Origin: a virus
Reading direction: 5' to 3' (one strand)
DNA length: 47,913 nt
IMG/VR virus record: IMGVR_UViG_3300032118_000010
Span: 1 to 47,913 of that record
Shown: positions 2,437-45,119 of the stretch, piece after piece
Position numbering within the stretch: position 1 is the stretch's first letter
Layout: every line of letters begins with the position of its first letter
The notes under the pieces: model-generated
What the model saw: the letters and a program-made list of their open reading frames with translations, nothing else
Databases searched by the model: none
Told to the model about the DNA's origin: nothing
Position numbers and translations under genes: made by a program

Positions 2437-2458
2437 TCCTGTCCGCAACGAGCGAAAA

Positions 2459-2492
2459 GCCGGCCGTCCGGGCGCAAACCCGGCCGGCCGGC
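2459..2492 (+). terminator. GC-rich hairpin after capsid gene
   Basis: Arms 2459-2472 and 2479-2492 (14 nt, one mismatch) around a CGCAAA loop, starting 22 nt after the capsid stop. There is no T-run afterwards, so it may be a partial terminator, a processing site or an mRNA-stabilising hairpin that keeps capsid mRNA abundant. Confidence 0.55.
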
Positions 2493-2535
2493 CCCTCTAC
2501 CATCAACTGCGCCTGCGGGCGGACGGAGATGCCTC

Positions 2536-2835: not shown

Positions 2836-2844
2836 AGCACCGCC

Positions 2845-3357: not shown

Positions 3358-3359
3358 CC

Positions 3360-3851
3360 ATGCCCGCCAATCCGAACTGGGCGCGCTGGGTGTTCGCATC
3401 CGTAGCCACCTACCTGAAGCAAGTCGCCGAGAGTGAGAACCTTCCCGTTCTGATCGAAGGCTTGGACGAGCGGGCCACGGAGTTTATGAGCGCCACGGAT
3501 CGGTGCGAGGTCCGCATCACGGGGCCGTTCACCAGGGAAGTCAGCCGCGACTACTTCCAGATCGAAGTCGTGGTGAACGTCCTGTTCGTGAGCCGCTACG
3601 AAGAGCAGAAGAACCAGTACGCCATCATCCAGAAGACGGGCGTATTCCAGGAGGCAATGGACGGAGCTATCGCCGTCTGCAAGTACGGGACTTTTCCTGG
3701 CGACGACGAACACGTCCTGGTCGGCTGCCTTTCGCCGGTCCAAGGCCGGCATGACGCCATCCGCGTGATGCACTTCGGCCAGATCAATCCAACCGACCGC
3801 CTGAAGCAGAGCATGGTGGATGCCCGTTACCGGATGGAGATCAGCGGGTAG
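3360..3851 (+). CDS. putative tail terminator / tail completion protein
   Basis: 163 residues from the ATG at 3360. It combines an N-terminal helix (NWARWVFASVATYLKQVAE), a central strand EVSRDYFQIEVVVNVLFVSRYEE and a C-terminal strand pair ending DARYRMEISG. This helix-plus-strand pattern, the length and the position immediately before the major tail protein fit tail terminator proteins that cap the tail tube and join it to the head. GGAGG lies upstream of the start (3349-3352 region). It is followed by an inserted GIY-YIG nuclease gene rather than directly by the tail tube gene. Confidence 0.55.
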   Translation: MPANPNWARWVFASVATYLKQVAESENLPVLIEGLDERATEFMSATDRCEVRITGPFTREVSRDYFQIEVVVNVLFVSRYEEQKNQYAIIQKTGVFQEAMDGAIAVCKYGTFPGDDEHVLVGCLSPVQGRHDAIRVMHFGQINPTDRLKQSMVDARYRMEISG

Positions 3852-3852
3852 C

Positions 3853-4461
3853 ATGTTCCTCCACGTGGTAACCAACCTTATCAACGGCAAGCAGTACGTT
3901 GGCATCACGACCAACATTGAACAGCGTCGGCGCGAGCACCTTTCCGGTCACGGATCGAAGCTGCTGCATCACGCAATCAGCAAGTATGGCAGACACAGCC
4001 TGCAATGGGAGGTGTGGTACGAAGGCGACGAAGCCTGGATCAAGATGATGGAGTATCGGGCCATTGTGATGCTCGAAACGCGAGCACCAAATGGCTACAA
4101 CCTCACGCTCGGCGGGGAGGGTTCGGTCGGGTGGCGGCCCAGCGCCGCGACACGTGAGAAGTTTCATCACCGGCGCAATGGGATGAAGGGCAGGAAACAC
4201 ACGGAGGAGACTTGCCAGAAGATCAGGGCAAAGGCTCTTGGAAGAAAACCCCATCCCAAGACGTTGAGGATGTTGACGGATACTGCCGGGGCCAAGAATC
4301 CTCGCGCTCGCCGCGTCACGGTCGATGGCGTTGCCTTCGGCTGCATCAAGGATGCGGCTCTGGCGACGGGCATCAATGTGAACACGCTGTACTCTCGTTT
4401 GCGTTCCTGTCAGAAGTCCGGCCGCTGGCCGGTGGGTTGGGGTTTCAAGACCCCAGTTTGA
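3853..4461 (+). CDS. GIY-YIG homing endonuclease, free-standing
   Basis: 202 residues, ATG one base after the previous stop. The N-terminal GIY-YIG domain is visible: a variant first motif HVV with NGKQYVG as the YIG part, the basic helix NIEQRRREH carrying the likely catalytic Arg, and MEYRAIVMLET followed by NGYNLTLGG with the metal-binding Glu. The C-terminus has NUMOD3-like DNA-binding repeats (GRKHTEETCQKIRAKALGRK) and an IENR1/NUMOD1-like helix-turn-helix (FGCIKDAALATGINVNTLYSRL). Such enzymes cut intron- or intergenic-site-free alleles to spread themselves. It ends 27 bp before the tail tube ATG and 44 bp before the group I intron, which has no ORF of its own. Confidence 0.92.
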   Translation: MFLHVVTNLINGKQYVGITTNIEQRRREHLSGHGSKLLHHAISKYGRHSLQWEVWYEGDEAWIKMMEYRAIVMLETRAPNGYNLTLGGEGSVGWRPSAATREKFHHRRNGMKGRKHTEETCQKIRAKALGRKPHPKTLRMLTDTAGAKNPRARRVTVDGVAFGCIKDAALATGINVNTLYSRLRSCQKSGRWPVGWGFKTPV

Positions 4462-7257: not shown

Positions 7258-10200
7258 ATGGCTGACGAGATTATCAACAAACTCGGCTTCGACGTGGAAA
7301 GCGCCCTGAGCGCTTTGCAGCGATTGGACTCTGCGCTGCAAGCCTCCAGCACGGCCTTCCAGGCGTTCGGCGCGGTCTTGGACGCCTGGAACAGCCAGGC
7401 GGCCAATGCCCTGGCCACGATGCGGGATATGGCCTCCGCCGCCTCGCGGCTCGCCTCGTCGATGTCGAAGATGGGCACAGGGCCGGCAATGCCCGCCGCG
7501 CAGGCTGCGCCCGCCTCGAAGCTCTGGCTGCCGCCCGATTACTCCCAGGCAACCGCCTCGGCCCAGCAGTTCACCAGCGCCATCGGGCGTGCCGGCCAGG
7601 CCGCCCGGACCACCGGCCAGCAGGCGGCTGCGGCCGCGCAGCAGGCGGCCGGCGGCGCACAGGCCGCGGCCACGCATACCGCGCGGCTGACCGTGACGTG
7701 GGAAACCCTCACGCGGGTCGTGATGACCCAGATGATCGTCCGCGCCTTGAGCCAGCTTCGTGACCTGCTCCGCGAGTCCGTGGACGAGGCCCTCAAGTTC
7801 TCCAAGAGCATTTCGGAAATCCAGACCATCGCCCCGAAGATCGACAAGAACTTCCAGGGGTTGAGCCGGGAGGTCGCCGATTTCTCGCGGTCGTTCAACT
7901 TTCCTCTGCCCGACGTGGCCGAGGCGATGTACCAAACGCTGTCCAACCAGTTTACTTCGGCCGCGCAGCGTTCGGACATTATGACGGCCTCCGCCAAGCT
8001 GGCCAAAGTCGGCGTCATGGAGCTAAATGACGCCGTGCTGCTGTTGACCGGTACGCTCAACGCCTACGGCATGAGGTCCAGCCAGGCGGAAGACGTTGCC
8101 GCCAAGTTCTTCAAGACGATCGAGTTGGGCCGCACCCGTGGTGCCGACCTGACGCCGGTGATCGGGCGGGTCGCGCCGATTGCCAGCGAGTTGGGGGTCA
8201 GCCTGGATGAAGTCAACTCCTCGTTGGTCGCCCTGACCATCGGCTCGATGCGCGTCCCCGAGGCGGCCACGAGCCTGCGGGCGGCCCTGGCCGCGCTCAT
8301 CAAGCCCTCCACTGATCTCCGGCAAGAGTTGCGCGCCCTGGGCTACGACACCGGCCAGCAGATGATCCGTGCCTTGGGCCTCCAAGGCAGCTTTGAGGCC
8401 CTGCGCGACAGCCAGAACGAAGACGTGGCGGCCACGGCGACCCTGTTCCGCAACATCCGCGCCTTGAACGCGGAACTGCGTCTGACCGGTTCGGGTGCTG
8501 AGCAGGCCGAGCAAGCCTTGAAGGTAATGAGCGCCACGTCGCGCGACAGCTTGAACGAGGCATTCAAGCTGTTCACCTCCAGCGACGCCGAACAGTACAC
8601 GAAGGAACTGAACAAGCTCAAGGTCGCCCTGGCGACGGAGATCGGCCCGGAACTGCTCAAGTTCCTGAGCGGCCTGCTCAAGGCGGCAGGCGGGGCCGAT
8701 GGGTTGGTTGCCGCGCTGAAGGGCATCGTGACGACCTTGACGAGCCTGGCCGAACCGCTGGCGATTGCCGGCGGGGCGCTTGCGGCGCTGTCGCTCCGCG
8801 CCAAGCTGGCGGCGGCCAATGCGTCCCTGCTGGGCAACGTCTTCAACAATGTCGTCGCCCCGATGGCGATGATCGTCTGGGGTGCCGACTTCCTGGACCA
8901 GCGTTTGGCCTCCATGCTGACCAACGCCAACGACAATTTCCGCAAGCAGGTCCAGGAGAAGGTAGCGGCCGAAGAAAAGGCCAGCGAAGAGCGGATTGCC
9001 GCGGAGAAGAGGGTATACGACGCAGCCGGCCGGCGGCTGGAACAGTACATGGCCCTGGTCCGCCAGGCGTACAACGCCCAGGTGGACGCCGCGCGGAAGG
9101 CCGACGAAGAGCTAATCACCTCGTCGCGGACCACGATGCAGGCGATGATCTCGACCCGCGAGAAGATCGTCCAGCAGTTCCGCGCGGCCGCCCAGAACGC
9201 CAACCAGGCCGTGGCAGATTCGATGAAGCGCCAATCGGACCTGCAAGGGCGCTACGACGACCTGCTCTTCAAGAATCGGATGCTGGGGTACAAGGACGCC
9301 TACTTCCTGGAGGACCAGTACAGCCGGCACGCCCTTTCCCTGGCGCGGGAGGCGGCTGCGGAACTGGCCAGGGCCGAGACCCCGGATCAGCAGCAGGCGG
9401 CCCAGGCCATCTTCCAACGGGCGATGGCGCACTCCCAGGAAGCTGAGTCGATTGCCTCCTCGGCGAAGAACGAATGGCTTCTGGACGACGCCCAGCGGGT
9501 GTCGTTGTCGATCATCCACCAGCAGATCGACGCAGAAAAGCAATTCCAGACCAACAGCGAGAACCGCGCCGCGCGGGCGGCCCAGGCGGCTGCGCAAGAG
9601 CAAGCCCGCGTGGACCGCATGAAGGTCTTGATGAAGGGCATCCTCGAAGACCTCAACCTCTTTGACAAGAAAGGCCCGCTGGACCCGCTCAAGTCGGCCG
9701 CCAAGTCGGAAGACTTGAAGCAGAAGATGGACGAGTTCAAGCGGCTGTGGATGGCGGGCACGGCCCAGATCGACCTGGGAGAGATGCTGAAGTTCGACAC
9801 CCTGCAACATAGGGTGCAGACCGCCTTGCAGGGCGGCGTCTCGCAGATGGAGGTGCAAAAGCTGTTCGCCGCCCCTCAGACGATCGACCAGTTGCGCGCC
9901 CAGATCGAACACGGCATGGGTGCCGTGGCGGTCGCCCTGAAGCCCTTTGTCCAGCCGGGTGGGGCCGTCACGCCTGAGATGCTGGCCGGCAAGACCCCTG
10001 CCGAGCAGACGGAGATCGTCACCAGGGAGTACCAGCGGCAGGTCGAACTGGTCGGCAAGCTGCAACGCGACCAGGACTCGATTGCCAAGTCCGCGATGCT
10101 CCAGAAGGCGGCCCAGGGCGGCCTGGGTGCCAACCTGGAAATCTACAAGGCCGCGATGGACGACTGGCGGACCTTCCTGGCCGAGGCCACGAAGAAGGGC

Positions 10201-11025
10201 CTCGGCACGATCTTCGGCGGCGGGGACATCCAGAAGGATACGCAAGCCCTGGCCGAACTGTCCCAGCAGTTCCAGAAGTTGTCCAAGACGGGCATTCAGG
10301 GCTTCGGGATGGACCAGTTCCTTGAGTTGCAGAAGAAGGCCACGGAACTGTTGAAGAGTCCCACCATGAGCCAGTTCGACAAGGATTTCATCAGCAACCA
10401 GATGGGTTTCGTGAAGTCGCTGGCGGACCAGGCGGAAGCGATGAAGGCCCTCCGGCAGACGCCCGAAGGCCAAAAGCGCAACGTGGAAGCGGAGTTGCAG
10501 AGGGCGCGGCAGGAGGCCGAACGCCTCAAGGGGATCATCGACCAACTGAATCCCCAGGCGGCGACCCAGATGGGCGAGGGCGCGCAGCAGGCCCAGGCGG
10601 CGCTGAGCGCGATCCCGAGCATGGCGGGCCTGGCCGGCGAGATTCAGGCGGCGGCCTCGGCGATGTGGAACCTGGCGGCGGCCTCCTGGGCGGTCGAGCC
10701 GCCGCCCGCGGTGACGGCGGCGCAGGGGAGGAAGGTCTGGAGTTTCCTTGCCTTCGGCGGGCCTCCCCAGGGCACGGATGTCATTCCGGCCATGCTCTCG
10801 CCGGGGGAAGTGGTCATCAACGCCGCCTCGGCGCGGCGATTCGCCTCGGAACTGACCGCCATCAACGCGGGTGTGCGGCCGGTCTACCGCAGCGAAGGCG
10901 GCAGCGTCACCAACATCGGTGACATCAACGTGACTGTCAACGGCGGCGGATCAAGCCGCCAAACGGCAAGGTCCATCGCCGCTGAGCTACGAAGGGAACT
11001 GCGGCGTGGCACGTCAACCCTGTAA
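7258..11025 (+). CDS. tail tape measure protein (TP901 type)
   Basis: 1255 residues. After an Ala-rich N-terminus, residues about 140-360 form the TP901 tape-measure core (SISEIQTIAPKIDKNFQGL, LTPVIGRVAPIASELGV, RVPEAATSLRAALAALI). Hydrophobic helices follow at about 490-545, then a long coiled-coil-rich region, and a typical C-terminal end with GTDVIPAMLSPGEVVINAAS and VTNIGDINVTVNGG before an Arg-rich tail. It sets tail length and is ejected during infection. By the usual rule of about 0.15 nm per residue the tail would be near 190 nm. It starts 12 nt after the previous stop without a clear Shine-Dalgarno, so translational coupling is likely. Confidence 0.96.
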   Translation: MADEIINKLGFDVESALSALQRLDSALQASSTAFQAFGAVLDAWNSQAANALATMRDMASAASRLASSMSKMGTGPAMPAAQAAPASKLWLPPDYSQATASAQQFTSAIGRAGQAARTTGQQAAAAAQQAAGGAQAAATHTARLTVTWETLTRVVMTQMIVRALSQLRDLLRESVDEALKFSKSISEIQTIAPKIDKNFQGLSREVADFSRSFNFPLPDVAEAMYQTLSNQFTSAAQRSDIMTASAKLAKVGVMELNDAVLLLTGTLNAYGMRSSQAEDVAAKFFKTIELGRTRGADLTPVIGRVAPIASELGVSLDEVNSSLVALTIGSMRVPEAATSLRAALAALIKPSTDLRQELRALGYDTGQQMIRALGLQGSFEALRDSQNEDVAATATLFRNIRALNAELRLTGSGAEQAEQALKVMSATSRDSLNEAFKLFTSSDAEQYTKELNKLKVALATEIGPELLKFLSGLLKAAGGADGLVAALKGIVTTLTSLAEPLAIAGGALAALSLRAKLAAANASLLGNVFNNVVAPMAMIVWGADFLDQRLASMLTNANDNFRKQVQEKVAAEEKASEERIAAEKRVYDAAGRRLEQYMALVRQAYNAQVDAARKADEELITSSRTTMQAMISTREKIVQQFRAAAQNANQAVADSMKRQSDLQGRYDDLLFKNRMLGYKDAYFLEDQYSRHALSLAREAAAELARAETPDQQQAAQAIFQRAMAHSQEAESIASSAKNEWLLDDAQRVSLSIIHQQIDAEKQFQTNSENRAARAAQAAAQEQARVDRMKVLMKGILEDLNLFDKKGPLDPLKSAAKSEDLKQKMDEFKRLWMAGTAQIDLGEMLKFDTLQHRVQTALQGGVSQMEVQKLFAAPQTIDQLRAQIEHGMGAVAVALKPFVQPGGAVTPEMLAGKTPAEQTEIVTREYQRQVELVGKLQRDQDSIAKSAMLQKAAQGGLGANLEIYKAAMDDWRTFLAEATKKGLGTIFGGGDIQKDTQALAELSQQFQKLSKTGIQGFGMDQFLELQKKATELLKSPTMSQFDKDFISNQMGFVKSLADQAEAMKALRQTPEGQKRNVEAELQRARQEAERLKGIIDQLNPQAATQMGEGAQQAQAALSAIPSMAGLAGEIQAAASAMWNLAAASWAVEPPPAVTAAQGRKVWSFLAFGGPPQGTDVIPAMLSPGEVVINAASARRFASELTAINAGVRPVYRSEGGSVTNIGDINVTVNGGGSSRQTARSIAAELRRELRRGTSTL

Positions 11026-33614: not shown

Positions 33615-35309
33615 ATGCAGCCCTTCTTCGAGCACAACAACCTGAGCCTGTATTGCGGCAACTGCCTCGACGTGCTCGCCACGCTCCCCGAGGCGTCCGT
33701 GGATTACGTCGTGACCGACCCACCCTACCTTCTCAACTTCATGGAGAAGGATTGGGACGCTGCTGGTGGCGACATCCCAACAAGCGAGTTGGTATTTCGG
33801 TCCTGGTTCGCCGGTTTGGTTGCCGGGGAGGCGTGCTTCCGAATCCACCGTGAAAAGGACGGAAGCTACTACGCTTGTGAGTTCAGCATCAAGATGCGCG
33901 CCGATGAAGGCCCGCTGCTGCGGGCGTTAGCTCGGCGCATCGAAGCAGGGAACGTGCAGGACATTCCGGCTGAGTCGCGCGCTGTGAATAGTGGACCGGA
34001 CGTGAAGTGGGTTGTCCATTCCCGCGAGGATTGCTGGAAGATCGCCCGCTTGTTGGACGGCACGCCACTCTATGCGAAAAAGCAACGTGAATACGATCTG
34101 TGGCGCAGAGCCCTGAACGTCTGGACGACAACGCCGCGTGGCAACCGTTGGTGTGGTCCGCGCGACAATTCGGCAATGGAATCCTTGTGGGAGGAGATGA
34201 AGACGCTGCGGCCGTTCGATCAGGACTTGGCTGATGGCGACTTCGATCCGCTGCGGCAACCGGATTACCTCTTCCACAATCGTTGGGCGAAAGCCTGCCT
34301 GCGCGTTGTGAAACCCGGCGGCCTCCTGCTGGCGTTTGGCGGTACACGCACCTATCACCGGCTGACTTGCGCAATCGAGGACGCCGGGTGGGAGATTCGG
34401 GACGCGCTGATGTGGCTCTATGGGCAGGGGATGCCCAAGTGCGGCGACATCGGCAAGCTGATCGACAAGTCAAAAGGCGCGGAGCGCGAAGTCATCGGCG
34501 ACAAGTTGGATCGTCCCGGCTACCACTTGCACGAAGGCAAGGGAAACGGGTGCTACGGCGGCGGCAACGGACTTCATGCCCCTGGCACGGACGCTCGGCT
34601 TCGCGCCGCGCAGATAACGGCACCGGCTACTCCCGACGGCGCGAAGTGGACCGGCTGGGCGATGGCGTTGAAGCCGGCCTGGGAGCCCATCGTCCTGGCA
34701 ATGAAGCCGCTGGACGGCACGATTGCCCACAACGCCCTGACCTGGGGCGTGGCCGGCATGAACATTGAGGCTTCCCGCATCGGCAACGAGAGCACGATAC
34801 GCACGCGCGGGGACAGCTTGACGGACGCCGGCTGGGCCAGCACGAACCGCTCGCCTCTGGGCGGGTCGGAATGCGGGCGATGGCCGGCGAACTTACTGCT
34901 GGACGAGGAAGCGGCCGTTCAACTGGACACTCAAACGGGCACGCTTACGAGCGGCACCAACTGCGTCCGCACGAAATCCGGCGACGGCTACCACGGCCGT
35001 CTCGGTAGGGCGGGCGATGTGCAGATCAGCTACGGCGACTCCGGCGGAGCGAGCCGGTTTTTCTACTGTGCTAAAGCGACACGCACGGAGCGCGGGCCGG
35101 GCAACGACCATCCGACCGTTAAGCCTCTGGCCCTCATGGAGTACCTGTTGACGCTGCTCTCGACCCCGGATGGCGGCGTGATTCTGGACCCCTTCGCCGG
35201 CAGCGGCACCACGCTCTTGGCCGCCAAGCGCCTGGGCCGCCGTTGCATTGGCGTCGAGTTGACCCAGCACAACTGCGAGATCGCCCGAGGGAGATTGCAT
35301 GTCGCTTGA
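33615..35309 (+). CDS. DNA methyltransferase with inserted LAGLIDADG domain
   Basis: 564 residues. Beta-class amino-methyltransferase order: motif IV TDPPYLL (DPPY at 35-38) near the N-terminus, then RVVKPGGLLLAFGGTRTYHR and EIRDALMWLYGQGMPK, and the SAM-binding motif I LDPFAGSGTTLLAAKRLGRR near the C-terminus. Such enzymes make N6-methyladenine or N4-methylcytosine and protect phage DNA from restriction. Residues about 54-216 do not belong to the fold: they are a LAGLIDADG endonuclease domain between motif IV and the next strand (separate entry). The gene overlaps the helicase by 11 nt. No cognate restriction enzyme is visible. Confidence 0.88.
   Translation: MQPFFEHNNLSLYCGNCLDVLATLPEASVDYVVTDPPYLLNFMEKDWDAAGGDIPTSELVFRSWFAGLVAGEACFRIHREKDGSYYACEFSIKMRADEGPLLRALARRIEAGNVQDIPAESRAVNSGPDVKWVVHSREDCWKIARLLDGTPLYAKKQREYDLWRRALNVWTTTPRGNRWCGPRDNSAMESLWEEMKTLRPFDQDLADGDFDPLRQPDYLFHNRWAKACLRVVKPGGLLLAFGGTRTYHRLTCAIEDAGWEIRDALMWLYGQGMPKCGDIGKLIDKSKGAEREVIGDKLDRPGYHLHEGKGNGCYGGGNGLHAPGTDARLRAAQITAPATPDGAKWTGWAMALKPAWEPIVLAMKPLDGTIAHNALTWGVAGMNIEASRIGNESTIRTRGDSLTDAGWASTNRSPLGGSECGRWPANLLLDEEAAVQLDTQTGTLTSGTNCVRTKSGDGYHGRLGRAGDVQISYGDSGGASRFFYCAKATRTERGPGNDHPTVKPLALMEYLLTLLSTPDGGVILDPFAGSGTTLLAAKRLGRRCIGVELTQHNCEIARGRLHVA
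33774..34262 (+). mobile_element. in-frame LAGLIDADG homing endonuclease insertion
   Basis: Codons about 54-216 of the methyltransferase. WFAGLVAGEACFRIHRE (64-80) is the LAGLIDADG helix and following strand; YYACEFSIKMRADEGPLLRA, VKWVVHSREDCWKIARLL and PLYAKKQREYDLWRRAL complete a single-motif domain that would act as a dimer. There are no intein features (no N-terminal nucleophile block; the HN at 221-222 is followed by Arg) and no group I intron core. Methyltransferase homology resumes at RWAKACLRVVKPGG. Boundaries are estimated within about 15 codons. Confidence 0.8.
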
Positions 35310-37335
35310 CTCCGTGAAAGTCGAAGCCCAGACATCCAGCGGCACGCGGATTCGTGTGCCTGTGCTGTTGAAGAAGAAGGATGGCCGCATCTATTTCTGG
35401 GATGGCAAGGTCGGCACGAAGACCCGCTACGGGCTGATGGCGGAAGTCAAGGCCATGCGCGGCGCGCATTTCCACGGCTACGACGACGAGGGTGAATACG
35501 CCAAGATCAAGGTCTGGTCGGTGGACGACTGCCAGCGCAACCGTTTCCAGATCGCCTATCTCTGCGGCGAGGATGTCTACGCCTGGTTCGACCGCCCGCT
35601 TGTGCGTCACAAGTACCGCCCGCTGATGCGCGGCGGCGTGCCGCAGAACTTCATGCCGCATCAGGCGGACATGGCCGACGCCGGCCTGACGTACCACTAC
35701 CAGATATTCGGGGCCGAAATGGGCACCGGCAAGACCCTGGCTGCCCAGATGGTGATTGAGAAGTCGGGCGTCGATCTGGTGTGGTGGGCAGGCCCCAAGA
35801 CCAGCATCCCAAACATCAAGCGCGAGTTCAAGCTGTGGGGCTTCCCCTTCGACCGCATCCAGGTGGAGTTCTTCACCTACGAGGGGTTGGTCCGCGTGAT
35901 GGACGAGTGGGACGGTTCGCAGACCTTGCCTCGGTTCTTCGTGGCCGATGAATCGAGCCGGTGCAAGAACGACACTTCGCAACGATCCAAAGCCTGCCAG
36001 AAGCTAGCGGACCTGATCCGCGCGAAGTATGGCCACGACGGCTACGTGATCGAGATGTCTGGCACGCCGTCGCCGAAGACGCCATGCGATTGGTGGAGCC
36101 AGTGCGAGATCGCCTGGCCGGGCTTCTTGAAAGAGGGCAGCCGCCGCGCGATGGAAGAGCGGCTGGCGTTCATGGTCGAGCAGCAATTCGATGCCGGCAA
36201 GTTCAAGAAGCGGATCGGCTGGAAGGATGACGAACGGAAATGCGCCCAGTGCGGAGAGACGTTCGAGGAGGGACCGCACGAATTGGACGGCGTAACGGAC
36301 CCAGACGATTACCACAAGTTCGACGCCAGCAAGAACGAAGTCGCCTACCTCTACGACCGGCTCAAAGGGCTGGTTGTCATCAAGCACAAGAAGGACTGCC
36401 TGCAACTGCCCGAGAAACGATACCGCAAGATTGTCTGCAAGCCGACCGCTAGCACCTTGCGCGTGGCCGAGGCCCTTGTCGGCGCTGCACCCAACGCCGT
36501 GACGGGCATGACCCTGCTGCGGGAATTGAGCGACGGCTTCCAGTACCGCGAAGTCCAGGACGGCATGACCCGTTGCACGCACTGCACGGACGGCACGGTC
36601 GCCGAGTGGGTGGACCCGAACGATCCCGAGGCCACTTACCAGGCCATCGACCTACTGGACCCAGAGTTGAAGGCCCGGTTGGTCAAGCAGACCGTCCGTT
36701 GCCCGGCGTGCGGCGGTAAGCGGGAAGTACCGAGGATGGTCCGCGTTGCGCGGGAAGTCCCGTGCCCGAAGGACGCCGCCCTGAAGATGCTCTTGGACGA
36801 GAACGAGGAGGTCGGGCGGGTAGTGATCTTCGCCGGCTTCACCGGCTCCGTGGATCGCATCGTCAAGCTGTGCCTCAAGGAAAAGTGGGACGTAGTGCGC
36901 TGCGACCAGGGGAACTTCCAGGTGTTCCGGGCCAAGAGTGACAGCCCGGAGGGCGCGTTGGCGACGGAAGAAGAGCCACTGGATTACTGGGCCAACTTGG
37001 AAGGCCACGGCAAGGTCGCCTTTGTGGCCAACCCGGAGTCAGGCGGCATGAGCCTGACCTTGGTGGAGGCCCGCATGGCGGTGTACTGGTCCAACAGTTG
37101 GAAACCAGAGTACCGCGTGCAAAGCGAGGACCGCATCCATCGCAAGGGCATGGACGAGAACCTGGGATGCACCATCGTGGACTTGATCCATCTGCCCAGC
37201 GATGAGCGCGTGCTCGACGTGATTCGCGCCAACCGGAAGTTGGAGCTAATGACGATGGGCGAAATCCTTCAAGGCGTCGATTGGAAGGACGCTGGCGAAG
37301 ACGGCGAAATGTCCGTGGAGGAAGCGACGCCGTGA
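35299..37335 (+). CDS. SNF2-type SF2 helicase/translocase
   Basis: 678 residues. Helicase motifs: PHQADMADAG (Q-like), Walker A GAEMGTGKT (138-147), motif II FFVADESSRCKN, motif III MSGTPSPKTP, motif V ESGGMSLTLVEA and motif VI QSEDRIHRKGM. Two Cys clusters lie between the helicase halves (CAQCG at about 314, and CTHC with CPACG at about 430-475), likely zinc ribbons. Phage members of this family are thought to help recombination, replication or DNA access. Start overlaps the methyltransferase end; the pair may work together as a modification-linked translocase, which is speculative. Confidence 0.9.
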   Translation: MSLDSVKVEAQTSSGTRIRVPVLLKKKDGRIYFWDGKVGTKTRYGLMAEVKAMRGAHFHGYDDEGEYAKIKVWSVDDCQRNRFQIAYLCGEDVYAWFDRPLVRHKYRPLMRGGVPQNFMPHQADMADAGLTYHYQIFGAEMGTGKTLAAQMVIEKSGVDLVWWAGPKTSIPNIKREFKLWGFPFDRIQVEFFTYEGLVRVMDEWDGSQTLPRFFVADESSRCKNDTSQRSKACQKLADLIRAKYGHDGYVIEMSGTPSPKTPCDWWSQCEIAWPGFLKEGSRRAMEERLAFMVEQQFDAGKFKKRIGWKDDERKCAQCGETFEEGPHELDGVTDPDDYHKFDASKNEVAYLYDRLKGLVVIKHKKDCLQLPEKRYRKIVCKPTASTLRVAEALVGAAPNAVTGMTLLRELSDGFQYREVQDGMTRCTHCTDGTVAEWVDPNDPEATYQAIDLLDPELKARLVKQTVRCPACGGKREVPRMVRVAREVPCPKDAALKMLLDENEEVGRVVIFAGFTGSVDRIVKLCLKEKWDVVRCDQGNFQVFRAKSDSPEGALATEEEPLDYWANLEGHGKVAFVANPESGGMSLTLVEARMAVYWSNSWKPEYRVQSEDRIHRKGMDENLGCTIVDLIHLPSDERVLDVIRANRKLELMTMGEILQGVDWKDAGEDGEMSVEEATP

Positions 37336-38824: not shown

Positions 38825-40141
38825 ATGAAGCTGACAAAGAAGAAGGTTGAGAAGATCAAGACCGCCATCGTCGAAGGCGTCACGCAACCCGAGATCGCCA
38901 AACGGTTCAAGATCAGCCGTTCCGTGGTTTCAGACATTGCCACGGGCCGGGTCCACAAAGACGTGGAATGGCCGGGCGGCGAAGCGCCGACGCCCAGGCG
39001 GGCGGGCGGACAGCACAAGAACATCCCGGACTACGACCCGACCGACAAGCGGGTCTTGGAGTTGGAGGCCGAGATCGTTCACCTGACCGAGGAGCGGAAC
39101 CGCGAGCGGCAGAAGGTCAAGGCCGGGGCGAAAATCGTCGGCTTGTTCAAGGCCGTGGTCTCCGAGATGGAACAGCGCATCAAATCGTTTGAGCCGCTGC
39201 CGCAGGCGGTGGAGTTCCGCCGCAAGGCGGAGATCGTCGAACACGTCGTCATGCACCTTTCGGACGGCCACCACGATCAGGTCGTGCGGCCGGAGGAGGT
39301 CGGCGGGCTGGAAAACTACAACTTCCCTGTCTCTTGCTGCCGTGCCGAGCGATACGTGGACACGGTAGTCGAATGGTGCCACGACACGCTGGCCCCGAAG
39401 TTCGCGTTTCCGGTCTTGTGGGTCTTGGCCTATGGCGACTACACCAGCGGCGAGATTCACCGGGCGTGCGAGCGGTCCTACTACAGGAACCAGTTTAAGA
39501 ACTGCCTCGCCATCGGCCAACTCCACGCGCTGATGTGCCGCGACCTAGCGGCGCACTTCGAGCAGGTAAACGTCCTCTACCTGGCGGGGAACCACGGCCG
39601 CCGCACGCCCAAGAAGGATTACCTGGGTGCCCACGACAACTGGGATTACCTCGTCGGTGAGGTGGCCCGGTTGCATTGCCGCGATCTGGGCAACGTCCAC
39701 TTCACCATTCCCGATGCGTGGAGCGCCAACGTCAACATCAATGGCGTCGGCTTCAACGTGAGCCACGGCGACGACGTTCGCTCCAACCTGGGCATTCCCT
39801 GGTATGGAATGGTCCGCCGGCAAAAGGGCCTCATTGCCTTGGGGGCGGCGGCCGGTGCCGAACGTTGCCGCTATTTCTGCGTCGGCCACCACCACGCTGC
39901 CAGCGTGCTGTCCGACGTGGACGGCGAACTGCTGGTCAACGGTTCGTGGGTGGGCACCGATGCCTATGCCTACAACGCCCTGTCTGGCTACCGCGAGCCA
40001 TCGCAGTGGTTGCACGGCGTCAATCCGAAGCACGGTATCACTTGGCGGATGAACTGCAAGCTGCGCCATGAGAACGAGAAGAACGGTCCCAAGCGCTACC
40101 TGATCGACGGTGGCCGCGACGTGGGGCCGCTGAAGACCTGA
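38825..40141 (+). CDS. HTH-metallophosphoesterase fusion
   Basis: 438 residues. Residues about 1-40 are a helix-turn-helix (VTQPEIAKRFKISRSVVSDI), then a coiled coil (about 75-120). The rest is a calcineurin-like phosphoesterase with the five metal motifs: LSDGHHD, AYGDYTSG, LAGNHGR, VSHGDD, VGHHHAA. Enzymes of this type act on nucleic acids or nucleotides in phages, perhaps in DNA processing or recombination. The HTH could direct it to DNA or it may resemble a terminase-small-like HTH. GGAGAG precedes the ATG. Before it, 38698-38824 holds no gene that I can support. Confidence 0.82.
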   Translation: MKLTKKKVEKIKTAIVEGVTQPEIAKRFKISRSVVSDIATGRVHKDVEWPGGEAPTPRRAGGQHKNIPDYDPTDKRVLELEAEIVHLTEERNRERQKVKAGAKIVGLFKAVVSEMEQRIKSFEPLPQAVEFRRKAEIVEHVVMHLSDGHHDQVVRPEEVGGLENYNFPVSCCRAERYVDTVVEWCHDTLAPKFAFPVLWVLAYGDYTSGEIHRACERSYYRNQFKNCLAIGQLHALMCRDLAAHFEQVNVLYLAGNHGRRTPKKDYLGAHDNWDYLVGEVARLHCRDLGNVHFTIPDAWSANVNINGVGFNVSHGDDVRSNLGIPWYGMVRRQKGLIALGAAAGAERCRYFCVGHHHAASVLSDVDGELLVNGSWVGTDAYAYNALSGYREPSQWLHGVNPKHGITWRMNCKLRHENEKNGPKRYLIDGGRDVGPLKT

Positions 40142-40343: not shown

Positions 40344-40544
40344 ATGACCACATGCACCATCGAGCACCACCGGGACGGCGAGTGCATCGAGAAGTGGAAC
40401 GTCACGGAGGAAATGATCCACCGTGACGGTGACGTGGCACGAGTCGTCTTCCCCGTAGGGCAAATCGTCCTGGCCAGCTATGACGAACTGCACTTCTGTC
40501 TCAGTGACGGGCTGGACGTTTTGAGCGAGGTCCAGCAACGGTGA
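40344..40544 (+). CDS. small unknown protein
   Basis: 66 residues: MTTCTIEHHRDGECIEKWNV, ARVVFPVGQIVLASYDELHF. Soluble, mildly acidic, no recognised family. It is 15 nt after the previous gene and is the last gene before the palindrome and the recombinase-in-trio element. A comparable small gene resumes after the element at 43983, so the element probably landed in the gap between two small genes. Confidence 0.6.
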   Translation: MTTCTIEHHRDGECIEKWNVTEEMIHRDGDVARVVFPVGQIVLASYDELHFCLSDGLDVLSEVQQR

Positions 40545-40567
40545 AGTATCGCGCCTTTTTCATCGGT

Positions 40568-40593
40568 GGTTTATGTTGTCCACAACATAAACC
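40568..40593. repeat. 26-bp palindrome at RIT left border
   Basis: GGTTTATGTTG (40568-40578) TCCA CAACATAAACC (40583-40593), perfect 11-bp arms, ending one base before the 29-bp terminal repeat of the RIT element. It may be the terminator of the preceding transcript, the insertion target, or an outer recombinase site. Confidence 0.85.
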
Positions 40594-40594
40594 T

Positions 40595-40623
40595 CCTTAT
40601 GTGGCGCAGCCAGTTATGTGGCG
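40595..40623 (+). repeat. RIT left terminal inverted repeat (29 bp)
   Basis: Begins CCTTATGTGGCGCAGCCAG and contains two TTATGTGGCG decamers 17 nt apart. Exact complement of 43947-43975. Confidence 0.97.
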
Positions 40624-40738
40624 TTTCTCGTTTCTCCGTCGGTATTTCAGCGTTTCGCCAGTTTTCTGCGCCACATAATTTTGGCGTTACGCTATGGGGA
40701 GAAGGTTTTCTTTCCCTGTTCTCCCCGGAGGTTTGACT

Positions 40739-41944
40739 ATGTTCGATCAGCTTTACACCTGCCCCGCCATATTGGCACGCCATCGCTCAGGCCCCTTGTT
40801 GGAGGAACGTCTTGCCTACCTGACGCATCTTGTGAACCAGGAACATGCCCGAAGCACCGTGCGGGAGGCCGCCAGTGATCTTCTCCTGATTGTGAAGATG
40901 CTTGAATTGGCTAACCGGCCTCGAAAGGCCATGACTCGTGACGAGGTAAGGCGGAAGGTGGCCAAACCCCGCCGTCTCCACGAACTGGCCGTTCGATGGC
41001 TCAAGTTCATGGGGCGACTGAAACAGCGACCCGTTCCGATCAGTCCCTATGCGAAGAAGATCAAAGCATTCGCGGATTACATGGAGCATGAAGCGGAACT
41101 GTCGCCCGCGACCATTTTCAACCGTTGCTGGTACGCCACGCGGTTCCTTGATCGGTTGCATATCAAAGGCAATTCTCTGCACGACATCACACCTCAGCGG
41201 ATCGACATGGCGTTTCAGAAGTTGCTCGAACCAGGAGGTTATTCGCGGGCGACGGTCCAAACCTGCGCCGGCTCAGTGCGGGCCTTCTTTCGGTTTGCAG
41301 AACGGCAGGGCTGGTGCCGTAAAGGCTTGGCGGCATCCATTCTGACTCCGCGTGTTTACTCGCAGACATTGTTGCCGCTGGGGCCGTCGTGGGACGACGT
41401 GCGGCGGTTGCTCGCCATGACCGAAGGCGATAAGCGGTCCAACATCCGTGCCCGGCCAATACTGATGCTGCTGGCGATCTACGGCCTCCGGCGCGGGGAG
41501 GTGAGCCGTCTGCGGCTGGAGGATTTCGACTGGGAGCATGAAGTGTTCCGCGTCGTATCTTCCAAGACGAGGCGGGTCCGAACCTATCCGCTAACGCGAT
41601 CCGTCGGCGATGCCATCCTCCGTTACCTGCAAGAGGTGCGACCGCGATCATCGCATCGGGAAGTATTCTTGACACTGTACGCTCCCTTCCGGCCTGTGAG
41701 CAGCATTGGACTGTGGTGCATCGTCGGCGCACGCCTGCGGTCTCTGCACCTGTCGCTTCCACACTACGGGCCTCACGCCCTACGTCATGCCTGCGCCACA
41801 CGGTTGCTGGCCGCCGGCCTGTCTCTCAAGGAGATCGGCGACCAATTGGGACACACGCAGCTCGAAAGCACGCAGGTGTATGCGAAGGTCGATCTCGCCG
41901 GTCTTCGTGAAGTCGCCGATTTCGACATGGGAGGTGTCCTATGA
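40739..41944 (+). CDS. ritA: RIT tyrosine recombinase 1 (RitA-like)
   Basis: 401 residues from the ATG at 40739, GGAGG at 40727-40731. A GGGGAGAA/TTCTCCCC hairpin (40696-40703/40719-40726) sits just before the ribosome binding site and may regulate it. SAM-like N-terminal core-binding domain (about 120-220), then the catalytic domain: GLRRGEVSRL (Arg I), SKTRRVRTYP (beta-hairpin Lys), HALRHACATRLL (H-x-x-R), LGHTQLESTQVYAKVD (His and Tyr nucleophile). All catalytic residues are present. It ends in an ATGA overlap with the second recombinase, so the trio is translationally coupled. Confidence 0.92.
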   Translation: MFDQLYTCPAILARHRSGPLLEERLAYLTHLVNQEHARSTVREAASDLLLIVKMLELANRPRKAMTRDEVRRKVAKPRRLHELAVRWLKFMGRLKQRPVPISPYAKKIKAFADYMEHEAELSPATIFNRCWYATRFLDRLHIKGNSLHDITPQRIDMAFQKLLEPGGYSRATVQTCAGSVRAFFRFAERQGWCRKGLAASILTPRVYSQTLLPLGPSWDDVRRLLAMTEGDKRSNIRARPILMLLAIYGLRRGEVSRLRLEDFDWEHEVFRVVSSKTRRVRTYPLTRSVGDAILRYLQEVRPRSSHREVFLTLYAPFRPVSSIGLWCIVGARLRSLHLSLPHYGPHALRHACATRLLAAGLSLKEIGDQLGHTQLESTQVYAKVDLAGLREVADFDMGGVL

Positions 41945-42879
41945 ACCTCCAATGCCTGATCGAACAGTACATTTCCTTCCAGCGGTCCCTTGGATCGTCG
42001 TTCAACTCGGACGCAATGGTGCTCCGGGCCTTCGGCCGTGCCTGCGGCCCACGAGCCAGCGTTGCCAGTGTTCGCCTTCGGCATGTGGATGCGTTCCTGG
42101 GCAAAGCTAGGCCCGTGACCAGGACGTGGTTCAGCAAGTTGACGTGTTTGCGGTGCTTCTTCCGATATGCCGCGAGCCGTGAGCACATCGCCACAATCCC
42201 TCTTCCGACGGTAATGCCGAAGCGCCCGCCGAAGTTCGTTCCCTACATCTACACGCGCGAAGAACTCCGCCGTCTTATCCAAGCGATTGAGCTTCACCCG
42301 CATTACCACGACACCCTGGAGCCCGTGACGATCCGCACGATGATTCTGCTGTACTATGGGGCCGGCTTGCGGCTGTGCGAGGCAACGAACCTGACTCGCG
42401 CCGACGTGGATTTGAGCGAGTCGATCCTGACGATTCGGGACACGAAGTTCGGGAAGACGCGGCTGGTTCCTATTGGACCGCAACTGAACCGGGTCTTGGT
42501 TCAGTATGACCGCACTCGGCCGAAGAAACGGCCAGCGGACGCCCCCTTCTTCACGACGAACAAGGGCGGCCCCGTCCGGCCGTGGAGGCTCGAAGTGAAG
42601 TTCCGAGTTCTGCGCGCTCGCGCGGGCATCCGGCGCGCCGGTGGAGCACGCCAGCAGCCGCGAATTCACGACATGCGACATTCGTTCGCTGTTCATTGTC
42701 TCACCTCCTGGTATCAGCAGGGTGCCGACGTGCAGCGGCTTCTGTACCAACTGTCGGTCTACCTGGGCCACGTCTGTCTGCGGGACACGCAGGTGTACTT
42801 GAGCATGACGCCTGAGCTTCTTCGTGAGGCCAACCAGCGCTTCGAGCGCTATGCCTGGAAGGAGCGACACCATGCCTAA
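41941..42879 (+). CDS. ritB: RIT tyrosine recombinase 2 (RitB-like)
   Basis: 312 residues. N-terminal SAM-like domain (MNLQCLIEQYISFQRSLGSS, WFSKLTCLRCFFRYAASREH), then the catalytic domain with GAGLRLCEATNL (Arg I), RDTKFGKTRLVP (Lys region), IHDMRHSFAVHC (H-x-x-R), YLGHVCLRDTQVYLSM (His and Tyr). Complete catalytic set. Starts within the last codons of the first recombinase and its own end overlaps the start of the third. Confidence 0.92.
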   Translation: MNLQCLIEQYISFQRSLGSSFNSDAMVLRAFGRACGPRASVASVRLRHVDAFLGKARPVTRTWFSKLTCLRCFFRYAASREHIATIPLPTVMPKRPPKFVPYIYTREELRRLIQAIELHPHYHDTLEPVTIRTMILLYYGAGLRLCEATNLTRADVDLSESILTIRDTKFGKTRLVPIGPQLNRVLVQYDRTRPKKRPADAPFFTTNKGGPVRPWRLEVKFRVLRARAGIRRAGGARQQPRIHDMRHSFAVHCLTSWYQQGADVQRLLYQLSVYLGHVCLRDTQVYLSMTPELLREANQRFERYAWKERHHA

Positions 42880-43882
42880 CACCGATTTGCTGAGTCCTTG
42901 GGTCCGCCGCTTCTTGTTGGAGCACCTCGTTGTCGAGCGGAACCTCGCCCGCAATACGCAGACGAGTTACCGGGATACCTTGCAGCAATTTCTGCCGTTC
43001 ATCGCTCGCGCCGCCCATCGACGGATCGAGGAGCTTCGCGTGGACGATGTTTCGCCAGCCCGCGTCCGAGCTTTCCTCCAAGATTTGGAGAAGACTCGCC
43101 GCTGTGGGATCGCCACGCGGAATCAGCGCCTCGCGGCGATCCATTCCTTGGCTCGGTTCATCGGATCGCGCAGCCCGGAACACCTGGAATGGTCCGGCCA
43201 GATTCGGATCATTCCGATGAAGAAGGTCGCGCGCCCGCTGATCGGGTACTTGGAAAAAGACGAACTGGATGCGTTGCTGAAAGCGCCCGATCGCCGCACT
43301 CCCCAAGGCCGTCGGGATTACGCAGTGCTTCTGTTTCTTTACAACAGCGGCGCTCGGGCGGACGAAGTGGCCCAGGTGCAGATCGGTGATCTTGACCTCG
43401 GTGCCGCATCCAACCGCGATTCCTCGTTCGTTGTTCTGCGCGGCAAGGGAAACAAACGCCGCCGCTGTCCGCTTTGGCCGAGGATGGTTGACGAATTGCA
43501 TCCTCTCATTGATGGTCGAGACGCATCCCAGCATGTCTTCCTCAACCGTCGCGGCCAACCCCTGACTCGATTCGGGGTATACGCGGTGGTCGAACGCTAC
43601 GCGGCTCGGGTGGTAACAAAGCTGCCATCCGTGGCGAAGAAACGTGTGACTCCCCACACGATCCGTCACACGACGGCGACCCACCTGCTTCGAGCCAGCG
43701 TGGACATCAACACGATTCGAGCGTGGCTGGGTCATGTATGCGTCAGTACGACCAACGTGTATGCAGAAGTCGATCTGAAGATGAAGGCCAAGGCACTTGT
43801 GAAGTGCGAAATCAAGGGCGGCAAGCCGAAGAAGCCTTGGCGCAAGAATCGAGGACTCATGGAGTTTCTGCGAAGCCTGTAG
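42872..43882 (+). CDS. ritC: RIT tyrosine recombinase 3 (RitC-like)
   Basis: 336 residues from the ATG at 42872, AAGGAG at 42859-42864, overlapping the RitB stop. XerC/D-like layout: LSPWVRRFLLEHLVVERNLA, NQRLAAIHSLARFIGSR, then NSGARADEVAQV (Arg I), RGKGNKRRRCPL (Lys), PHTIRHTTATHLL (H-x-x-R), WLGHVCVSTTNVYAEVD (His and Tyr). The C-terminus has a Lys-rich extension (KGGKPKKPWRKNRG). Complete and apparently functional. It ends 9 nt before the inner decamer of the right end. Confidence 0.92.
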   Translation: MPNTDLLSPWVRRFLLEHLVVERNLARNTQTSYRDTLQQFLPFIARAAHRRIEELRVDDVSPARVRAFLQDLEKTRRCGIATRNQRLAAIHSLARFIGSRSPEHLEWSGQIRIIPMKKVARPLIGYLEKDELDALLKAPDRRTPQGRRDYAVLLFLYNSGARADEVAQVQIGDLDLGAASNRDSSFVVLRGKGNKRRRCPLWPRMVDELHPLIDGRDASQHVFLNRRGQPLTRFGVYAVVERYAARVVTKLPSVAKKRVTPHTIRHTTATHLLRASVDINTIRAWLGHVCVSTTNVYAEVDLKMKAKALVKCEIKGGKPKKPWRKNRGLMEFLRSL

Positions 43883-43946
43883 AACCGAAATTATGTGGCG
43901 TCCAGCACAGTAACGACCCCTGGAATCCCGGACGATTCGTGTTGGA

Positions 43947-43975
43947 CGCCACATAACTGGCTGCGCCACATAAGG
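43947..43975 (-). repeat. RIT right terminal inverted repeat (29 bp)
   Basis: Exact complement of 40595-40623; contains CGCCACATAA at 43947 and 43964. The preceding inner decamer at 43891 starts 9 nt after the RitC stop. Confidence 0.97.
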
Positions 43976-43982
43976 TGGCCCG

Positions 43983-44168
43983 GTGGACGGACAGGAACGT
44001 GTCCTGGTGCATCGCAATCGCTACATCGGGATGCGTGACCAGCCGCAGTGCGTCTACCGGCTGCTGTTTGCCTTCGGCGAACCGCACACACTGGTCTACT
44101 CGCTCTATGGCGTCGAAGAGACCTTGAACCGATTGTGGCACCGCTATGCGGGAGAAGACCATGCGTAA
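43983..44168 (+). CDS. small unknown protein next to RIT border
   Basis: 61 residues from a GTG at 43983, eight bases after the RIT end: GQERVLVHRNRYIGMRDQPQ, CVYRLLFAFGEPHTLVYSLY, GVEETLNRLWHRYAG. The in-frame upstream stop (TAA 43971-43973) lies in the RIT terminal repeat, so the original start may have been lost on insertion. An ATG at 44031 is the alternative. The stop overlaps the next ATG. No family recognised. Confidence 0.55.
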   Translation: MDGQERVLVHRNRYIGMRDQPQCVYRLLFAFGEPHTLVYSLYGVEETLNRLWHRYAGEDHA

Positions 44169-44499
44169 GCCGGACCAGTTTTACGACCTGCTGCGGCTCG
44201 TCGCGCACAAAGACCCGTGGAGCGAGCAGGTGGAGTTCATGCTGCTCCACCACGTCAGCGGCAAGCCGCGAGCGGTCTGCGGCCCGCTGCAATTCACCGA
44301 GATTCCTGAAGGTGCCCAGGTCAACCCGACTTTTTGCCTCTATGCCCCCGAGGCCCAGGAACTAATGGACATGCTCTGGAACTGCGGGCTGCGCCCCACC
44401 CAGGGCCAGAGCAGCGCCGGGCAACTGGATGCCGTGGAACGTCACTTGGCCGACATGCGGGCCATCGCCTTCAACAAGCTGGAGATCCAACCGTGCTGA
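44161..44499 (+). CDS. unknown protein
   Basis: 112 residues, ATG 44161 inside the last codons of the upstream gene. FYDLLRLVAHKDPWSEQVEF, HHVSGKPRAVCGPLQFTEIP, FCLYAPEAQELMDMLWNCGL, RPTQGQSSAGQLDAVERHLA. Alpha/beta, soluble, no recognised family; the last part (DAVERHLADMRAIAF) is a helix common at the end of small phage proteins. It overlaps the next gene (GTGCTGA). Confidence 0.6.
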   Translation: MRKPDQFYDLLRLVAHKDPWSEQVEFMLLHHVSGKPRAVCGPLQFTEIPEGAQVNPTFCLYAPEAQELMDMLWNCGLRPTQGQSSAGQLDAVERHLADMRAIAFNKLEIQPC

Positions 44500-44738
44500 G
44501 CAAAGTGTGCTGGTGTTTCTGGCAACTGTTTCCTTGCACCTACCGGACCTTCTACGGCGACGAGTTCGGCCGAATCCACTTTGCCGTCTGGAAGATGTGG
44601 TTCGGCCGGTGCTACCGAGTCAATGACGTGATCGTGGACACCTTCACCACCGCATTGGACAGCACCCTGCGTCTCTTGGACGCGCTGTGTGCGGCCAACC
44701 GAACCCGCGAGTGCTGCGGCGAGTGCCGCAGCAAATAG
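44493..44738 (+). CDS. small Cys/aromatic-rich protein
   Basis: 81 residues from a GTG at 44493 with GGAG upstream, overlapping the previous stop. MLSKVCWCFWQLFPCTYRTF, YGDEFGRIHFAVWKMWFGRC, and a C-terminal RTRECCGECRSK. Nine Cys residues in 81 and many Trp/Phe residues are unusual. It could be a small metal-binding or membrane-associated protein. No family recognised. Confidence 0.55.
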   Translation: MLSKVCWCFWQLFPCTYRTFYGDEFGRIHFAVWKMWFGRCYRVNDVIVDTFTTALDSTLRLLDALCAANRTRECCGECRSK

Positions 44739-44762
44739 CCCCTTCCTCAACAGGAGACACCC

Positions 44763-44963
44763 ATGCCCGCCGACGACCTGCGTTACCCCCAGTTGCCCGA
44801 GGATCGGGACGACGACTTCGAGGATGAAGACGACGACTGGGAAGACGACTTCGACGAAGACGATCCGTACTTCGACGACGACGACGATCTCGATGACGAC
44901 GAGTGGGAGGACGAAGACGACGACTGGGACGACGAAGACGAGGAGGACGAGTACGGAGCATAG
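44763..44963 (+). CDS. extremely acidic small protein
   Basis: 66 residues, of which 43 are Asp or Glu and only two are Arg; there is no Lys. Acidic runs are spaced by single aromatic residues (W at 26, 48, 55; F at 19, 30, 37). AGGAGA precedes the ATG and the gene is 24 nt after the previous stop. Such a charge pattern can mimic DNA, as in phage anti-restriction proteins, or bind basic proteins and cations. Composition alone cannot show which. No homologue is recognised. Confidence 0.7.
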   Translation: MPADDLRYPQLPEDRDDDFEDEDDDWEDDFDEDDPYFDDDDDLDDDEWEDEDDDWDDEDEEDEYGA

Positions 44964-45025
44964 TCGAGCCACCATGCGTGGAAACGATTCCCTCACCGTG
45001 GCCTCGCGGCGACGGTGAGAGCCGT

Positions 45026-45098
45026 TGTGGCGTAGCTCAGTTGGCAGAGCGGGTGCCTGTTGAGCACCGGGTCGCTGGTTCGAGTCCAGCCGCTACAG
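45026..45098 (+). tRNA. tRNA-Asn(GUU)
   Basis: 73 nt cloverleaf. Acceptor TGTGGCG/CGCTACA (one G-U), D-stem GCTC/GAGC, anticodon stem GGTGC/GCACC with loop CTGTTGA (anticodon GTT), variable loop GGGTC, T-stem GCTGG/CCAGC with loop TTCGAGT, discriminator G. CCA is not encoded. It reads AAC/AAU codons. It is the only tRNA in the window. Confidence 0.95.
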
Positions 45099-45119
45099 CC
45101 TCGATCTTGGAGAAAGCCA

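What the first reader, a model, noticed from the sequence alone, without database searches (positions are those of the whole stretch)
40595..43975. Intact RIT element in a phage with mirror-symmetric decamer ends
Three complete tyrosine recombinases lie between 29-bp perfect inverted repeats. Each end has two TTATGTGGCG decamers 17 nt apart and one inverted inner copy 45-46 nt further in, exactly mirrored. Three enzymes and three sites per end suggest one site per recombinase. RIT elements are mostly known from bacterial chromosomes and plasmids, so a phage-borne copy could be a transfer vehicle.
Basis: partly seen in the sequence, partly recalled or inferred. Interest (0 to 1): 0.75.

Follow-up and report, generated by a model that had tools for sequence, protein, structure and literature searches.

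The report
Phage-borne three-recombinase transposon with palindromic cap
A phage genome carries an intact RIT transposon, and comparison with empty sites shows that the true mobile unit is the three recombinase genes plus a 20-base palindromic cap, inserted with a 6-base target duplication; this suggests how these poorly understood elements move.

Summary
In detail: an intact recombinase trio with mirrored three-decamer ends lies in a tailed-phage genome. The borders are incomplete. Four related phages lack the insert; against them the inserted unit is window 40571-43973: a 20-bp palindrome (40571-40590), a 6-bp spacer B, and the RIT (40597-43973), flanked by a 6-bp target duplication (GGTGGT/GGTGGC).

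The same anatomy occurs in other phages, Planctomycetota, rhizobia, Burkholderiales, complete E. coli plasmids and (cap at a RIT end) classical pHG1. The palindrome co-varies with each element's own end sequence; B is usually an inverted copy of the target 6-mer. Near-identical units occur in both orientations at one target; where the cap is asymmetric, RIT and cap flip together while the cap stays on the same target side.

Best model (inferred): a circle of RIT plus cap carries two equivalent core sites (RIT end, 6 bp, cap) and integrates conservatively through either. 'One site per recombinase' is not supported. Movement between phages is supported by 99.97-100% identical RITs between diverged flanks; phage-to-host transfer is not shown.

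It is a RIT family member. Cap, target duplication and two-core logic were not in the literature I could read; key papers were unavailable.

The parts
40565..40570 (+). Outer 6-mer A (GGTGGT): left copy of the duplicated target
   Evidence: Single copy (GGCGGT or GGAGGT) in empty sites L103, L104, L163, L108; matches to the two flanks overlap by exactly 6 bp there
40571..40590 (.). 20-bp palindromic cap TTATGTTGTCCACAACATAA, part of the mobile unit
   Evidence: Absent from the empty sites; same cap 6 bp from a RIT end in many other RITs, co-varying with the RIT's own arms
40591..40596 (+). Inner spacer B (ACCTCC), near-inverted copy of the target 6-mer; with the cap arm and the first RIT arm it forms a complete core-like site
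40597..40606 (+). Left end arm 1, TTATGTGGCG
40614..40623 (+). Left end arm 2, TTATGTGGCG
40669..40678 (-). Left end arm 3, inverted decamer
40739..41944 (+). ritA; start ATG 40739 behind GGAGG is inferred, the frame is open from 40694
   Evidence: Pfam Phage_integrase 1.2e-27; catalytic motifs
41941..42879 (+). ritB; ATGA overlap with ritA
   Evidence: Pfam Phage_integrase 3e-17; catalytic motifs
42873..43882 (+). ritC; 7-bp overlap with ritB
   Evidence: Pfam Phage_integrase 1.5e-30; first Met conserved in alignment A1; catalytic motifs
43891..43900 (+). Right end arm 3 (inner, inverted relative to the other two)
43947..43956 (-). Right end arm 2
43964..43973 (-). Right end arm 1; last base of the mobile unit is 43973
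43974..43979 (+). Outer 6-mer C (GGTGGC): right copy of the duplicated target
40541..44168 (+). Small phage ORF interrupted by the unit (40541-40570 continued at 43980-44168, about 72 codons; inferred by reading the joined flanks)
   Evidence: Uninterrupted in L103, L104, L108, L163; reading frame from sequence

Best explanation
The element is a RIT transposon whose real mobile unit is [palindromic cap - 6-bp spacer B - RIT]. Shown by comparison: the unit inserts as a whole with duplication of a 6-bp target; at one target the half x always meets the cap and the half y the RIT; near-identical units occur in both orientations at one target, and where the cap is asymmetric the cap flips together with the RIT. 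Inferred: the trio excises the unit by recombining outer sites A and C into a circle (RIT - B - cap - N). That circle holds two equivalent tyrosine-recombinase core sites of the form 'RIT end arm - 6 bp - cap arm'. Integration exchanges strands across 6-bp spacers that resemble each other (donor spacer versus target 6-mer). Using one core gives one orientation, using the other gives both parts flipped. Arms 2 and 3 of each RIT end are probably accessory binding sites; the cap supplies a bare core arm without accessory sites and so sets polarity. The internal core B stays live and can attack a second target copy, giving y-RIT-y joints. Which recombinase cuts where is not known.
For: Empty sites with exactly 6-bp overlap for the window insertion (4 phages) and for the L096/L097 locus (22 contigs); an E. 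coli MTase insertion compared with an empty plasmid. Spacers A, B (reverse complement) and C agree at 5.1-5.3 of 6 positions against 2.1-2.3 in shuffles, 0 of 20,000; cap arms match their own RIT arms, 7.2 of 8 against 5.8, 1 of 20,000. One E. coli strain: three plasmids, 100% identical 3,920-bp units, one with RIT and cap both flipped and the cap still on the x side; the same coupled flip in Mesorhizobium L047/L078 versus L073. L096 versus L097: RIT 100% identical, inverted between flanks 91% alike. y-RIT-y joints in L006, L007 and in the complete plasmid behind L050/L075.
Against: No excision circle or activity was observed. The predicted reciprocal product x-cap-x was not found. Simple reciprocal integration gives one target and one donor 6-mer, yet A=C in several units; this needs donor and target spacers that already agree, or later correction. 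Coupled flips rest on two informative contrasts (the L096/L097 cap is a perfect palindrome and cannot show a flip). Some RITs have unclear ends or no visible cap (L051, L074, L079, L080, L083-L085).
Confidence: 0.68

Rival explanations
1. The cap acts as a single-stranded hairpin, as attC sites do in integrons or as in the copy-out route proposed for SE elements: one strand of the unit is moved, the 32-nt A-cap-B palindrome folds and pairs A with B, and replication fixes the product. This would also explain why B is the reverse complement of A.
For: A-cap-B is a near-perfect 32-mer palindrome in many units; SE elements, which also use a 6-bp spacer, are modelled as single-strand copy-out (PMC10214605).
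Against: In L078, L095, L097 and L012 A and B pair poorly, so perfect pairing is not required. Coupled flips are explained more directly by a double-stranded circle with two cores. Nothing strand-specific was tested.
Confidence: 0.22
2. The palindrome was already in the phage and is the preferred landing site: RIT elements insert 6 bp away from pre-existing palindromes.
For: The cap lies outside the inverted repeats and on one side only.
Against: Empty sites of the window locus, of L096/L097 and of the E. coli MTase gene have no palindrome and a single 6-mer. The cap co-varies with the RIT's own arms.
Confidence: 0.03
3. One reading: the element ends at the 29-bp repeats and each of the three sites per end serves one recombinase.
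For: Three genes and three decamers per end.
Against: The three sites are one repeated sequence, identical in the window and near-identical elsewhere. The cap adds two more. The borders are refuted by empty sites.
Confidence: 0.05
4. y-RIT-y joints and flips are assembly artefacts of repeated RIT sequence, and only the unit with its target duplication is real.
For: L006 and L007 are metagenome contigs with diverged arms (91% and 64-73% alike).
Against: The flipped copy and the y-RIT-y joints also occur in complete plasmids (L263, L050/L075).
Confidence: 0.15

Closest known systems
RIT (recombinase in trio) elements, e.g. C. metallidurans CH34 ritA1B1C1 and C. necator pHG1 (PMC2864759, PMC3414803)
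   Same: Three overlapping recombinase genes in the order A-B-C, about 3.4 kb, terminal inverted repeats near 30 bp; the pHG1 RIT has the same arms, 17-nt spacing and a 20-bp cap.
   Different: Phage-borne; here the unit is shown to include cap and spacer, with a 6-bp target duplication. The accessible papers mention only inverted repeats and an 'overlapping palindromic sequence'.
SE and GInt elements (PMC10214605, PMC5385486)
   Same: Several tyrosine recombinases, a 6-bp spacer at the joined ends, site preference.
   Different: Four genes, shorter inverted repeats, no 20-bp cap described, 6-bp footprint on one side; a copy-out route is proposed.
Tn916 and Tn554 type tyrosine-recombinase transposons
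   Same: 6-bp core or coupling sequence next to the ends; circle or joined-end intermediates (established knowledge, and PMC10214605 for Tn554 and Tn916).
   Different: No trio, no cap; one donor and one target coupling sequence rather than a target 6-mer on both sides plus an inverted inner copy.
Integron attC cassettes
   Same: A palindromic recombination site read by a tyrosine recombinase (established knowledge).
   Different: No integron integrase; here the palindrome is a constant part of the element and varies with its ends; hairpin use was not tested.

Membership tests
RIT element | Three adjacent tyrosine recombinase genes ritA-ritB-ritC with short (4-8 bp) overlaps | tested here: met
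   Overlaps of 4 and 7 bp, Pfam Phage_integrase in all three; criterion from PMC3414803
RIT element | Each protein matches its own Rit class of a named RIT in the right order | tested here: met
   P0001, P0002 and P0003 best match the consecutive pHG1 genes WP_011154055, WP_011153963 and WP_011153962 at 32, 34 and 36% identity
RIT element | Catalytic residues present in all three | tested here: met
   R, K, HxxR, GH and Y motifs in each protein
RIT element | Terminal inverted repeats near 28-34 bp, length about 3.5 kb | tested here: met
   33-nt arms, RIT 3,377 bp; criterion
RIT element | RitA with two core-binding domains, RitC with an extra C-terminal helix | tested here: inconclusive
   RitA has about 120 residues before its SAM domain and RitC extends past the catalytic domain, but no structure was predicted
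RIT element | Demonstrated mobility | not testable with these tools
   Movement is inferred from identical copies between diverged flanks and from empty sites
SE / GInt element | Fourth conserved gene (Srap/GinD) and two or three integrases between short inverted repeats | tested here: not met
   Only three genes lie between the ends
Phage integration module | Recombinases fixed as part of the phage genome, with attP | tested here: not met
   Close relatives have the locus without the trio

The most novel reading that the evidence does not exclude
RIT elements in general are two-part transposons: a recombinase trio and a separate 20-bp palindromic cap travel in one circle with two equivalent 6-bp core sites. 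The cap makes insertion polar, lets the unit enter in two orientations, and leaves a live internal site that can join a second target, producing inverted joints in phages and plasmids.
Probability: 0.6. Interest if true: 0.82.

Novelty: new member of a known kind. Interest (0 to 1): 0.72.

Why it matters
RIT elements are widespread, yet a 2023 overview lists their target specificity, empty site and mode of movement as untested (PMC10214605). The comparison made here gives their exact borders, target duplication, core sites and a cap that ordinary annotation would miss, and makes their mechanism directly testable with a 3.9-kb unit present in complete E. coli plasmids. It also shows that phages carry RITs and exchange them, with target sites in conserved protein motifs of phage and plasmid genes.

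Tried and rejected
Palindrome as a pre-existing phage feature: rejected by empty sites. Site-per-recombinase idea: no sequence distinction among the sites. Host of the phage: the major head protein gave no match in 294 Planctomycetota genomes at E 1e-15, which shows nothing by itself, so the host stays unknown; the RIT's nearest cellular relatives are Planctomycetota MAGs. Identical RIT in plasmids (for L097) or a similar RIT in INPHARED phages (for the window): none. Reciprocal x-cap-x product in the Ca. Megaera plasmid and in viral contigs: not found. In a sample of 294 Planctomycetota genomes RitC matched at E <= 1e-80 in only one. Key papers Van Houdt 2009, Ricker 2013 and Nielsen 2017 were not available, so novelty of the cap cannot be settled. 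L006/L007 were first taken for assembly chimeras; L050/L075 in a complete plasmid made that less likely but did not exclude it. Several plasmid RITs (L051, L074, L079, L080, L083-L085) have degraded or unclear ends and were not counted.

Full report
What is there. The window is a whole IMG/VR virus record of 47,913 bp. It has tailed-phage genes: head scaffold 69-938, major head protein 994-2433, tape measure 7258-11022, helicase 35299-37332, exonuclease 38825-40138. At 40565-43979 lies a transposon insertion. The three recombinases are RitA (40739 or 40694-41944), RitB (41941-42879) and RitC (42873-43882). They overlap by 4 and 7 bp and carry complete tyrosine-recombinase motifs.

True borders. 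A search with the upstream exonuclease returned 80 related viral contigs. Four of them (L103, L104, L108, L163; flanks about 86-93% identical) run straight from window 40570 to window 43974, with the two matches overlapping by exactly 6 bp. The empty site reads TTCATC-GGCGGT-CCTGTGGACGG in L103; the window reads TTCATC-GGTGGT-[insert]-GGTGGC-CCGGTGGACGG. The insert is therefore 40571-43973, 3,403 bp. It begins with a 20-bp palindrome, TTATGTTGTCCACAACATAA, then 6 bp ACCTCC, then the RIT proper. The palindrome came with the RIT. The insertion splits a small phage ORF of about 72 codons. A fifth relative, L106 (= L009/L011), keeps only the ritC end of a RIT at the same place.

The same anatomy elsewhere. 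A scan of fetched loci found x - A - cap20 - B - RIT - C - y in phage contigs (L008, L089, L092, L094, L095-L098), Planctomycetota genomes (L013/L086, L014), and Mesorhizobium, Paraburkholderia, Cupriavidus and E. coli plasmids, and the cap at a RIT end in the classical pHG1 array. In the last, CGCGGT-TCATGCCGCTAGCGGCATGA-ACCGCG is a perfect 32-mer. Where RIT ends read TTATGCCG the cap reads TTATGCCG...CGGCATAA; where they read TAACTCCG the cap reads TAATTCCG...CGGAATTA. Over 12 units at independent targets, cap arms fit their own RIT arms better than shuffled ones (7.2 versus 5.8 of 8; 1 of 20,000 shuffles as good). A, C and the reverse complement of B agree at 5.1-5.3 of 6 positions against 2.1-2.3 in shuffles, 0 of 20,000. 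Of 14 viral contigs holding the exact cap pattern TTATGTGGTNNACCACATAA, 11 have a RIT end (or, in L004/L005, an IS91-like element between cap and RIT) at the expected place. Each RIT end has arm 1, arm 2 at +17 and an inverted arm 3 after 45-47 nt; in L013 the gap is 56-57, one helical turn longer (L073's right end and L052's left end are less clear). So the mirrored three-site end is a family trait, not special to this phage.

Empty sites elsewhere. The E. coli plasmid RIT sits in a DNA methylase gene at the motif DPFAGSG. The methylase flank is found in 4,586 E. coli records, only 7 of which cover most of the RIT-bearing query; the empty junction read in L053 is CTA-GACCCG-TTTGC, against CTG-GACCCG-[cap]-CGGGTC-[RIT plus one extra gene]-GACCCG-TTTGCAGG in L035. 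For the phage locus of L096/L097, about 22 contigs show the empty site with exactly 6-bp overlap, CGGGCG in most of them. In L004, L005 and L048 an IS91-like element lies between spacer B and the cap; in L048 the outer 6-mers (TAGCGG) still agree, and in L004 they agree at 4 of 6.

Clues to mechanism. In E. coli WP4-S18-ESBL-07 three plasmids carry 100% identical 3,920-bp units at the same target. On pWP4-S18-ESBL-07_1 the RIT is flipped and so is the asymmetric cap, yet the cap still lies on the x side. In Mesorhizobium pMspAR02c, L047/L078 and L073 show the same coupled flip: GGGTT cap with the ritA end, AACCC cap with the ritC end. In viral L096/L097 a 100% identical RIT sits in opposite orientations between flanks that are 91% alike. 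A circle of RIT, B, cap and N has two core sites, both of the form RIT end - 6 bp - cap. Entering through one or the other gives exactly these two products, and the non-palindromic 6-mer fixes which target half meets the cap. Spacer B then records an earlier round, as in L095 (A=C=CTTCCG, B CGGGCG), L097 and L078. The internal core B, acting on a second target copy, would yield y-RIT-y joints. Such joints are seen in phage contigs L006 and L007 and in a complete Ca. Megaera plasmid, where the two arms of L075 are 92% alike, i.e. probably two different IS66 copies. What is shown by comparison: unit, duplication, polarity, coupled flips, recent movement. What is inferred: the circle, the conservative exchange, and the roles of the arms.

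Targets. RITs repeatedly interrupt codons of conserved motifs: HDLRH of RitB (L013, L073), DPF, NPPF and HPPYW of DNA methylases (L035, L089, L014), GFGSF in what looks like an HU-type protein (L052), DDYSGYKN of IS66 (L048, read by eye), and a small phage protein that is a hot spot in L004-L008, L275 and L278. Motif readings are from translation of joined flanks; only the E. coli MTase is annotated as such.

Phage carriage. About 20 viral contigs carry RITs or RIT ends. L004 and L006 share a 99.97% identical RIT between phage flanks 66-75% alike over most of their length, so RITs pass between phages. No copy identical in a phage and a cell was found, so the transfer-vehicle idea is only half supported.

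Known and new. It meets the RIT definition. Published text mentions inverted repeats of 28-34 bp and an 'overlapping palindromic sequence' (PMC3414803, PMC10214605) and lists target specificity, empty site and movement of RITs as not tested. I could not read Ricker 2013, Van Houdt 2009 or Nielsen 2017, so parts of the anatomy may have been noted there. I label the object a new member of a known kind; the two-part mobile unit is the new claim.

Noticed in passing
L004:7152-9902, L048:6170-8780; the same end also in L077 and L082: An IS91-like element (tyrosine recombinase plus IS91-type transposase in L004) whose end reads TTG-ACTAA-CCGC lies exactly at the 6-mer next to a RIT end in several unrelated RITs, between spacer B and the cap where both can be seen.
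   Followed up: partly
L035:6214-6789: The E. coli RIT unit carries an extra gene (WP_024216357, no Pfam match) between ritC and the right end: a RIT with a passenger gene.
   Followed up: partly
window about 2719 (ORF 1971-3851): This phage position is a RIT hot spot in relatives (L004-L008, L275, L278); the window itself is an empty site there.
   Followed up: yes
window 33615-35309: DNA methyltransferase ORF with a LAGLIDADG endonuclease domain inside it, possibly an intein.
   Followed up: no
window 44166-45089: 923 bp with a tRNA-Asn gene (45026-45100) and a strongly acidic small ORF, missing from the close relative L106/L011.
   Followed up: no
window 3820-4461: Homing endonuclease-like gene near the structural genes.
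   Followed up: no
L086:5131-8546 (same element in L013): A second, different RIT with TTATGCCG ends is inserted in the HDLRH catalytic motif of ritB of a RIT related to the window's: one RIT inside another.
   Followed up: yes
L013/L086 ends: Gap between arm 2 and arm 3 is 56-57 nt instead of 45-47, one helical turn more, suggesting helical phasing of the end complex.
   Followed up: partly
L270, L273, L277: Three viral contigs hold the exact cap pattern with no recognisable RIT nearby; chance palindromes or leftovers.
   Followed up: no
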